Assembly (NCBI GenBank): GCA_012728785.1
Contig: JAAYEK010000170.1
Span: 1 to 46,567 of the forward strand
Direction: 5' to 3'
DNA: 46,567 nucleotides
Source: Bacillota bacterium
GTDB taxonomy: Bacteria; Bacillota; UBA4882; UBA8346
The notes under the pieces were generated by a model. The model was not told where the DNA came from, made no database searches, and saw only the letters and a list, made by a program, of their open reading frames with translations. This document shows positions 14,820-16,738 of the stretch, piece after piece. Positions within the stretch are counted from its first letter, which is position 1; each line of letters opens with the position of its first letter. Position numbers and translations under genes: made by a program.

Positions 14820-14850
14820 GAAAGACCGGGAAACCTCCCGGTCTTTCTCA
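14820..14850 (+). terminator. Intrinsic terminator after hsp20
   Basis: The 11-bp stem GAAAGACCGGG/CCCGGTCTTTC (14820-14847) has a 6-base loop and is followed by TCATTTT on the plus strand. It may also stop the convergent minus-strand gene, although no U-tract follows on that side. Confidence 0.8.
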
Positions 14851-14852
14851 TT

Positions 14853-15731
14853 TTAAACCATCTCCCTGACTTCGGGTAAGAACGCTTGATTGATGATTCG
14901 AACTCCCATTAGTACACTTTCCGCGTTTTTTAACATATCTTTATAATCGAAAACCGTTTGATAACCAGGTAATCCAATCATCTGAACTTTTTTACCCAAA
15001 GCTATGGCTAATCCACAAATAAAGGAGAACCTGGCGTTTACTTCCTGAGCATTATCCCAAGTCGAGCTGACAAATAGAGCTGCTATCACTTTTGCATGAT
15101 TTATCGCATTTAAATACCAAGGCAGTAATTGACAGCGATCCTCGTTCCAATCATCAACTAAAGTATTGGGAAACAATTCTTGAAAAACTTTAAGTGTTGC
15201 AATGGCAATTTCATGATTAGTTATCCCTTTCAAAAAAAGAGCGTCCCCTGCGATACCTGGATTTCCATCCTCGTACATTTCAATTTCAGGTTCTCCCAAA
15301 CAACAATCAGGGCCAGACATTCGAATCGATTCGACCAGTTCATCAGTGTTTTGAACTGAATTAATCTGCAATCCGGTGAGCATTTCGATCATCTCCAGGT
15401 CCCGGTTCCGGTCGCTTTCCGAGTTTCCTTGAATAAAAAGAATTAACCGTTTCCGTTTACCAAAAGCATACCCGGTTTCAAATAGCACATTTGGGTTAAG
15501 TCCTGACAAATCAGCCAATAAGTAATGGGATTCTTCGATTTGCCTGAGGATATTCAGTATAATCCGGGAACTGTTTCTTTTAATCGCTCTCCAAGTATAA
15601 ATTCGGAGTTTGGAATCGGTTGTGTTGTGTAATTGCACGGCCCGTTCAATGATTGCAGCTTGCACTTTATCCTGGCTGGAATAAGCGAAGAACCCCTGAT
15701 AATTCTCAGCCACTGCCTTTTTTTCACTCAC
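14853..15731 (-). CDS. Tandem TIR / nucleoside 2-deoxyribosyltransferase-like protein
   Basis: No close family is recognised. The 292-aa protein appears to hold two Rossmann-like halves. Half 1 (about 10-140) has FFAYSSQ, then ADLSGLNPNVLFETGYAFGK, a pattern shared by nucleoside 2-deoxyribosyltransferases and TIR-like NAD-cleaving folds; Glu85 is the candidate catalytic acid. Half 2 (about 150-285) has HAKVIAALFVSS and NARFSFICGLAIALGKKVQM, a second variant of the same layout. It has no signal peptide or membrane segment, so it is probably cytosolic. The start is the GTG at 15731, 9 bases after AAGGAGG; a TTG at 15737 is too close. The 5' leader carries a GEMM-I riboswitch. It is not in an operon. 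A sensing or defence-type NAD/nucleotide hydrolase role is inference only. Confidence 0.6.
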   Translation of the reverse strand: MSEKKAVAENYQGFFAYSSQDKVQAAIIERAVQLHNTTDSKLRIYTWRAIKRNSSRIILNILRQIEESHYLLADLSGLNPNVLFETGYAFGKRKRLILFIQGNSESDRNRDLEMIEMLTGLQINSVQNTDELVESIRMSGPDCCLGEPEIEMYEDGNPGIAGDALFLKGITNHEIAIATLKVFQELFPNTLVDDWNEDRCQLLPWYLNAINHAKVIAALFVSSTWDNAQEVNARFSFICGLAIALGKKVQMIGLPGYQTVFDYKDMLKNAESVLMGVRIINQAFLPEVREMV

Positions 15732-15864
15732 TTTCAAACCCCTCCTTATTGTATTAGTTTATAGGGCCAAGATACAGATTCGTAAGTATGTAATCCATTA
15801 GTAAAATAGCCCCACTAGAGCCGGGAACATAAACTATGGTTCAATGTTGAACGCCTAATGCTGG

Positions 15865-15981
15865 AAAAAAAAACAACTTGATTTGACGGCTCGGCGATCA
15901 TTGCTTCTCTTATCTAAGAAGCATTAGACCCGTAGCTTTGCGTCCCCGGTTTTCACCGAGTTTGCCTTTTCAAAAAGTTGT
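15865..15981 (-). promoter_or_regulatory. GEMM-I (c-di-GMP-I class) riboswitch with terminator
   Basis: Read on the minus strand: GGCAAAC (from 15966), a 6-bp hairpin CTCGGT-GAAA-ACCGGG with a GNRA loop, then the signature GGACGCAAAGC with CTACGGGTCTAA, a variable hairpin TGCTTCT..AGAAGCA, then ATGATCGCCGAGCCG. These are the conserved blocks of the GEMM / cyclic di-GMP-I aptamer, though the 3' strand differs from the textbook form. The outer arms ACAACTT (15981-15975) and AAGTTGT (15879-15873), plus TTTG/CAAA, close the aptamer and are followed by T9, so the ligand-bound form may act as a terminator (OFF switch). It is located about 135 bases before the TIR/NDT-like gene. Confidence 0.78.
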
Positions 15982-16738
15982 CTAATTAACCTGTTTTCAC
16001 AATAACTATACTCTAAATTCAACCATACTATTGAGCTTAAGTTATAAACTAGGTAAAAATATTGGCCTTCATCTCAAGCCCAGGAATACACTACAAAACA
16101 TATTGTTCACCTACAAATAATTCCTTACCAATTTATAACTAAGTCTATCATGAGCCTTATCGGTTGTCAAATAATATAAAATAATAAATAAATTGTAAAA
16201 TTGGCAAACATTTTTTCCTAGCCACATCATACTCCTTTTCTCTTCATAATCCGCCCTTAATGATTCAAACATTTTCTGGAACTCTTATTCATTATTGCCG
16301 TTACTTATGATTGAAACTTTGATGGACCAAAAGTTACGTTCATCAACAGTAAGCTAATATTGATAATTGTTTACTGTTTGTTGATAAAAAGCCCCCTCAA
16401 AGAAAAACCCATTAAGTATAAAGCGAATTAAATAATTCGTACACTTAAGGGGTTTTTCCCATGGAAAACCAGTCATTACCTCGGTCTCCCATTTGTATTT
16501 TAGTTATTTCCTTTCCTTAAACACAATATCTATGGCGAGTCCTGCCGCTATCAATAACATTTTAAAAACTTTATTATAATTTACTTTTTCCCTATATGTT
16601 CCTTTAATTCTTTTTAATTTTTTTTGCAAAATCACCCTGTCCGCCTTCACCTAGTCCTCAGCCTAAAATTTCCGGTTAAAATTAACGCAGCCGTTTAATA
16701 CTGTTAGTAAGAAAAAGTTAAACCACGGAGGAAATTAA
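15982..16738. other. 757 bases without a recognisable gene
   Basis: AT-rich, with stops in all frames and no tRNA, IS or CRISPR signature. It must hold the minus-strand promoter of the riboswitch transcript (none is convincing) and the plus-strand promoter of the 16739 gene. The one strong structure is the long hairpin described separately at 16402-16458. The low coding density and AT richness compared with the neighbours suggest a decayed or laterally acquired segment. Confidence 0.6.
16402..16458. terminator. 57-base near-perfect hairpin, possibly a bidirectional terminator
   Basis: GAAAAACCC (16402-16410) pairs with GGGTTTTTC (16450-16458), TTAAGT with ACTTAA, and CGAATT with AATTCG around an AAAT loop. 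The A5/T5 tracts are part of the stem, as in bidirectional terminators. However, no gene ends within several hundred bases on either strand, so it may instead be a remnant palindromic element or end an unseen small RNA. Confidence 0.4.

What the first reader, a model, noticed from the sequence alone, without database searches (positions are those of the whole stretch)
14853..15981. GEMM-I (c-di-GMP class) riboswitch in front of a tandem TIR/deoxyribosyltransferase-like gene
Seen: GGCAAAC, a GNRA-capped hairpin, GGACGCAAAGC and the ACGGGTCTAA block, enclosed by a helix (ACAACTT/AAGTTGT) that ends in T9. The only downstream gene is a 292-aa protein with two Rossmann-like halves resembling NDT/TIR-like nucleotide-cleaving folds. 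Known: GEMM-I riboswitches bind c-di-GMP, and a subgroup binds cGAMP; they normally control motility, membrane and signalling genes. Inferred: a cyclic dinucleotide would control expression of a possible NAD- or nucleotide-hydrolysing effector. The closing helix doubling as the terminator predicts an OFF switch, with gene expression when the ligand falls.
Basis: partly seen in the sequence, partly recalled or inferred. Interest (0 to 1): 0.82.

Follow-up and report, generated by a model that had tools for sequence, protein, structure and literature searches.

The report
c-di-GMP riboswitch before a TIR-like gene
A real c-di-GMP-sensing RNA switch, apparently built so that its closing stem is also the transcription stop signal, lies in front of a lone gene that looks like the nucleotide-cleaving front end of an anti-phage-type protein; this pairing was found in this one genome only, so it may be a local oddity.

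Summary
A full-length c-di-GMP-I (GEMM-I, RF01051) aptamer lies at 15976-15882 on the minus strand (76 bits, cut-off 35). It is closed by ACAACTT/AAGTTGT running straight into T9. The gene is 292 aa (GTG 15731, AAGGAGG site). It is not proven: no antiterminator is visible, and the stem is predicted to form without ligand. The protein's N-terminal half is NDT/TIR-like, with the catalytic Glu. Its C-terminal half is Rossmann-like without that Glu, so it is not a tandem repeat of the first. Relatives (26-47% identity) carry both halves as the front of ~780-866-aa Sll1717-family P-loop ATPases, one beside an 8xMP gene and a ThsB-like TIR gene. Here the ATPase is absent. None of 17 relatives' loci has a GEMM RNA, and the congener lacks the cassette. 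One specificity base is unusual: U where C92 is the rule (3 of about 73 copies). An engineered C92U aptamer is reported to bind 3',3'-cGAMP. The genome has 17 GGDEF domains, no CD-NTase and no sign of Hypr enzymes, so c-di-GMP remains the likeliest ligand.

The parts
15882..15976 (-). c-di-GMP-I (GEMM-I) riboswitch aptamer
   Evidence: RF01051, 76 bits, 1-87/87
15971..15981 (-). 5' arm of the closing helix P1 (ACAACTT outer, TTTG inner)
   Evidence: complementary to 15885-15873; outer pairs >95% in ensembles without ligand except the innermost (0.77)
15873..15885 (-). 3' arm of P1 (CAAA-TC-AAGTTGT)
   Evidence: CAAC/GTTG outer helix shared by 23 of 37 family and class copies
15865..15873 (-). 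T9 tract directly after P1: terminator tail
   Evidence: sequence
15966..15966 (-). G20-equivalent ligand-contacting base (G, as in c-di-GMP aptamers)
   Evidence: Rfam alignment; numbering from PMC6274999 and PMC9049102
15886..15886 (-). C92-equivalent position, here U; neighbouring C15885 could serve in another register
   Evidence: Rfam alignment; U at this position in 3 of about 73 copies
15741..15747 (-). ribosome-binding site AAGGAGG
   Evidence: sequence
14853..15731 (-). 292-aa gene: NDT/TIR-like domain plus second Rossmann-like domain
   Evidence: PF05014 E 2e-4 (below cut-off), PADLOC TIR effector PDLC00733 8e-6, AlphaFold2 pLDDT 84 / pTM 0.87, Foldseek to NDT, DNPH1, SARM1
15297..15731 (-). 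domain 1 (residues 1-145), catalytic-type Glu85 in NVLFETGYAFGK
   Evidence: aligned to E88 of C. thermalis NDT; invariant in 15 relatives
14856..15269 (-). domain 2 (residues 155-292), Rossmann-like without the Glu
16142..16170 (-). promoter-like TTGACA-17-TAGACT with TG, upstream of the riboswitch (consensus match only)
14820..14847 (+). terminator hairpin of the convergent hsp20 gene, just past the end of the gene of interest

Best explanation
A transcriptional c-di-GMP riboswitch controls a stand-alone, two-domain TIR/NDT-like effector module. When the ligand binds the three-way junction, P1 is clamped shut; because P1 ends directly in nine U's, it acts as an intrinsic terminator and the gene is off. 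When c-di-GMP is low (motile, planktonic state), P1 closes too slowly or too weakly across its ~85-nt loop and polymerase reads through into the gene. The protein probably cleaves a nucleotide or NAD-type substrate through Glu85 and belongs to the front-end modules of Sll1717-ATPase defence-like proteins. Shown: the aptamer, the helix and U run, their recurrence in the family, domain 1 homology with the Glu, and the missing ATPase. Inferred: ligand, OFF direction, kinetic switching, enzymatic activity and a defence role.
For: RF01051 at 76 bits. G20 kept, as in c-di-GMP rather than A20-type aptamers. Outer helix CAAC/GTTG plus U run in 23 of 37 copies from this family and class, with compensatory A:T to G:C in L092 and L104. 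Helix abutting the T run unlikely by chance. 17 GGDEF domains in the genome; the 15 read keep the Asp that Hypr enzymes change (the position of that Asp is from my own knowledge). Another copy in this genome precedes an HD-GYP-like gene, and copies in the family precede chemoreceptor-like, CheD/CheW-like, HD-GYP-like and pilin-like genes, a typical c-di-GMP regulon (assignments by eye). Gene: all 15 relatives match PF05014 and the PADLOC TIR effector model; Glu85 aligns to NDT E88; confident model matching NDT, DNPH1 and SARM1. Relatives carry the Sll1717 ATPase, one in a locus with 8xMP and ThsB-like TIR genes.
Against: No antiterminator is visible, and P1 is predicted to form in over 95% of the ensemble without ligand, so switching must be kinetic or the element may simply attenuate. 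The base at position 92 is U rather than C. The RNA-gene pairing is absent from the loci of all 17 relatives examined and from the congener. No Sll1717 ATPase is present in this genome.
Confidence: 0.55

Rival explanations
1. The riboswitch is an inherited leader left at a rearrangement point; the effector gene landed behind it by chance, and the RNA works mainly as a constitutive attenuator with no selected link between c-di-GMP and this effector.
For: The cassette sits at a synteny break: in the congener dnaE-hsp20 is followed by a GntR-like gene and the amidase/CBS/zinc-finger block is elsewhere. No relative has the RNA. P1 is predicted to form without ligand. Position 92 departs from consensus.
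Against: Aptamer and P1 are intact with a strong score, and the gene is intact with a good ribosome site.
Confidence: 0.28
2. The U at position 92 shifts the aptamer to 3',3'-cGAMP, or makes it accept both ligands, so that a cGAMP signal controls a CBASS-like TIR effector.
For: An engineered C92U class I aptamer is reported to bind 3',3'-cGAMP (PMC12032345 citing Shanahan 2011); C92U structures exist (PDB 3MUR, 3UD3).
Against: No SMODS CD-NTase. None of the 15 GGDEF domains read shows the Hypr change. U can wobble-pair with G. C15885 next to it may take the ligand-binding role in a shifted register, because J1/2 here reads as 4 or 5 nt depending on the first P1 pair.
Confidence: 0.07
3. An ON switch: ligand binding blocks a downstream terminator and raises expression.
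For: A weak terminator-like hairpin lies at 15826-15808 (-); ON GEMM switches exist (pilM, PMC9262584).
Against: That hairpin has a poor U tail and does not overlap P1. The strong U9 follows P1 itself, and the layout is shared across the family.
Confidence: 0.1

Closest known systems
c-di-GMP-I riboswitch (GEMM-I, RF01051), e.g. C. difficile Cd1, a transcriptional OFF switch (PMC9262584)
   Same: Same aptamer family, full model length, G20 kept; transcription-level OFF control is known for Cd1.
   Different: Cd1 uses a separate terminator and an antiterminator; here P1 itself runs into the U tract. Position 92 is U. The target gene type is unusual.
GEMM-Ib 3',3'-cGAMP riboswitch (Geobacter, 4YAZ)
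   Same: Same fold and junction.
   Different: GEMM-Ib carries A20 and C92; this one has G20 and U92.
Nucleoside 2-deoxyribosyltransferase / TIR superfamily (PF05014, PF10137, PADLOC CBASS TIR effector)
   Same: Domain 1 fold and the NVxFExGxA(x)GK motif with the catalytic-type Glu.
   Different: Below Pfam cut-offs; fused to a second Rossmann-like domain.
TIR/NDT-Rossmann-Sll1717 P-loop ATPase proteins (NF047389), e.g. L110, L. noguchii plasmid p1, Leptolyngbya pLBX
   Same: Both N-terminal domains along their whole length, 26-47% identity.
   Different: The window gene stops before the ATPase, and no such ATPase occurs in the genome.

Membership tests
c-di-GMP-I riboswitch (RF01051) | covariance-model match above gathering over the whole model | tested here: met
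   76 bits versus 35, 1-87/87
c-di-GMP-I riboswitch (RF01051) | G at position 20 and C at position 92 contacting the two guanines | tested here: inconclusive
   G20 present, U at 92; a register shift is possible
c-di-GMP-I riboswitch (RF01051) | binds c-di-GMP | not testable with these tools
   needs in-line probing or ITC
GEMM-Ib (cGAMP) | A20 | tested here: not met
   G at 15966
Intrinsic-terminator expression platform fused to P1 | stem abutting a U tract, conserved in related copies | tested here: met
   23 of 37 copies, compensatory changes in L092 and L104
NDT/TIR-like nucleotide-cleaving superfamily (domain 1) | fold and catalytic Glu | tested here: met
   Foldseek to NDT, DNPH1, SARM1; Glu85 aligned to NDT E88
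PF05014 Nuc_deoxyrib_tr | score above the Pfam gathering cut-off | tested here: not met
   22 bits versus 28.8
Tandem of two NDT/TIR domains | second half homologous to the first, with Glu | tested here: not met
   no Glu, no family hit, hhalign probability 2%
Sll1717 P-loop ATPase defence-like proteins (NF047389) | C-terminal P-loop ATPase | tested here: not met
   ORF ends before it; none in the genome
CBASS | CD-NTase in the genome | tested here: not met
   no PF18144 match
NADase / anti-phage effector | enzymatic activity or protection | not testable with these tools
   needs assays

The most novel reading that the evidence does not exclude
A natural GEMM-I variant with U92 senses 3',3'-cGAMP (or reads c-di-GMP and cGAMP together) and gates a TIR-type immune effector at transcription, an RNA-level counterpart of CBASS or TIR-STING signalling.
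Probability: 0.06. Interest if true: 0.85.

Novelty: new member of a known kind. Interest (0 to 1): 0.42.

Why it matters
If c-di-GMP really controls this gene, cells would set the dose of a nucleotide-cleaving, defence-type effector by the motile/sessile second messenger through RNA; I found no precedent in the open literature searched. The fused aptamer-terminator layout shared across one bacterial family also offers a compact OFF-switch design, and the natural U92 variants allow a direct test of how GEMM-I aptamers change ligand.

Tried and rejected
P0001 alone found no relative in genome contigs or viral contigs, no phage hit and no PDB sequence hit. The match to the designed armadillo repeat 5mfi in profile searches was rejected as a spurious repeat match. 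Whole-model Foldseek hits with low TM and rmsd near 20 were ignored; only single-domain hits were used. A split ATPase elsewhere in the genome was rejected. Decay of a longer gene: no ATPase remnant in any of the three minus-strand frames downstream. My first ungapped own-versus-swapped arm test was uninformative (own mean 6.2, swapped 6.0, shuffled 5.8 of 7), because the arm picker often took the wrong U run; it was replaced by the anchored count, which selects for CAAC/GTTG and so tests only the neighbouring pairs. Regex parses at L022, L046 and L099 were discarded by eye as misparsed ends.

Full report
Observation. The Rfam scan of the window returns a single hit above threshold, c-di-GMP-I (RF01051), at 15976-15882 on the minus strand, 76 bits against a cut-off of 35, covering the whole model. 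It is followed by a helix arm and nine T's. The closing helix is ACAACTT (15981-15975) with AAGTTGT (15879-15873), extended inward by TTTG/CAAA after a two-base bulge. The chance of such a helix abutting a T run in shuffled flanks was about 2 in 10,000. The downstream gene starts most plausibly at GTG 15731, behind AAGGAGG, and ends at 14853, giving 292 aa.

Expression platform. Among 37 GEMM-I copies from this taxonomic family and a few class mates, 23 show the same CAAC/GTTG outer helix directly followed by a U run, with the outermost pair changed from A:T to G:C in L092 and L104 and an inner pair changed in L092 and L096. The count selects for the CAAC/GTTG core, so only the neighbouring pairs are independent evidence, and the compensatory cases are few. 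Two cautions apply. The nearest-neighbour model closes P1 in more than 95% of the ensemble without ligand, and no competing antiterminator was found in the leader or downstream, so the ON state would have to be kinetic. The canonical aptamer fold is only 0.3 kcal/mol from the best fold.

Ligand. The position that contacts one base of the ligand (G20; numbering from PMC6274999 and PMC9049102) is G here, as in c-di-GMP aptamers and unlike the A20 of the cGAMP type. The position that pairs with the other base, C92, is U in the Rfam alignment. U was seen at this position in only three of about 73 parsed copies: this one, L074 and L091. A review states that a C92U mutant binds 3',3'-cGAMP, citing Shanahan 2011; the primary paper was not available. 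An alternative register in which C15885 takes the ligand-binding role cannot be excluded. The genome has 17 GGDEF domains; the 15 that I could read keep the Asp that Hypr enzymes replace, and there is no SMODS CD-NTase. c-di-GMP is therefore the likeliest ligand, perhaps with reduced affinity.

The protein. Domain 1 matches nucleoside 2-deoxyribosyltransferases weakly (PF05014, E 2e-4, below cut-off) and a PADLOC TIR effector model (8e-6). All 15 members of the relatives' alignment match both families. The profile aligns Glu85 with E88 of C. thermalis NDT, the residue changed in the E88A and E88Q structures. The AlphaFold2 model is confident (pLDDT 84, pTM 0.87), and single-domain Foldseek hits are NDT, DNPH1 and the SARM1 TIR. 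Domain 2 is a Rossmann-like alpha/beta domain in the model, but it lacks the Glu, hits no family and is not detectably related to domain 1.

Relatives. Full-length relatives sit on plasmids of Leptospira and Leptolyngbya and in 16 genome contigs from several phyla. Where intact, they are about 780-866 aa with a C-terminal P-loop ATPase; the two plasmid proteins were tested and match the Sll1717 family. The closest (L110, Bacillota MAG, 47%) lies next to an 8xMP membrane protein gene and a ThsB-like TIR gene, a defence-like setting. The window gene is the two-domain front end only; no ATPase remnant follows it and none is encoded elsewhere in the genome.

Conservation of the pairing. None of 17 relatives' loci carries a c-di-GMP-I RNA. 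In the only congener available, dnaE-hsp20 is followed by a GntR-like gene and the genes on the other side of the cassette are on another contig. The cassette thus sits at a synteny break and the pairing is known from one genome. Other GEMM-I copies in the genome and family precede ordinary c-di-GMP targets such as HD-GYP-like and chemoreceptor-like genes (assigned by eye).

Conclusion. The riboswitch is real and ordinary in class, with an apparently fused aptamer-terminator platform. The target is unusual, and the pairing has no support from conservation. I hold an OFF switch on a TIR/NDT-like effector module most likely (0.55), a chance association next (0.28), and a cGAMP-sensing variant possible but unlikely.

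Noticed in passing
L083, L090, L094, L095, L100, L102 (A20); L084, L108 (C20); L109 (U20): GEMM-I copies in family members G003 and G008 vary at specificity position 20, including rare C and U: candidate ligand variants.
   Followed up: partly
L074 and L091: Two further natural GEMM-I aptamers with U at position 92.
   Followed up: partly
L110:2913-6460: Operon-like set of 8xMP membrane protein, ThsB-like TIR protein and TIR/NDT-Rossmann-ATPase protein; possible undescribed defence system.
   Followed up: partly
L116 (3992-5118): A Bryobacteraceae relative also ends just before the ATPase, followed by what reads as a transposase start; probably interrupted by an insertion.
   Followed up: partly
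window 16402-16458: 19-bp imperfect AT-rich inverted repeat (89% complementary) in a gene-poor stretch of about 1 kb upstream of the riboswitch.
   Followed up: no
L041 (Rhodococcus qingshengii plasmid): The relative is broken by an in-frame stop and lies near a TIR-domain gene and a DUF4062 gene.
   Followed up: no
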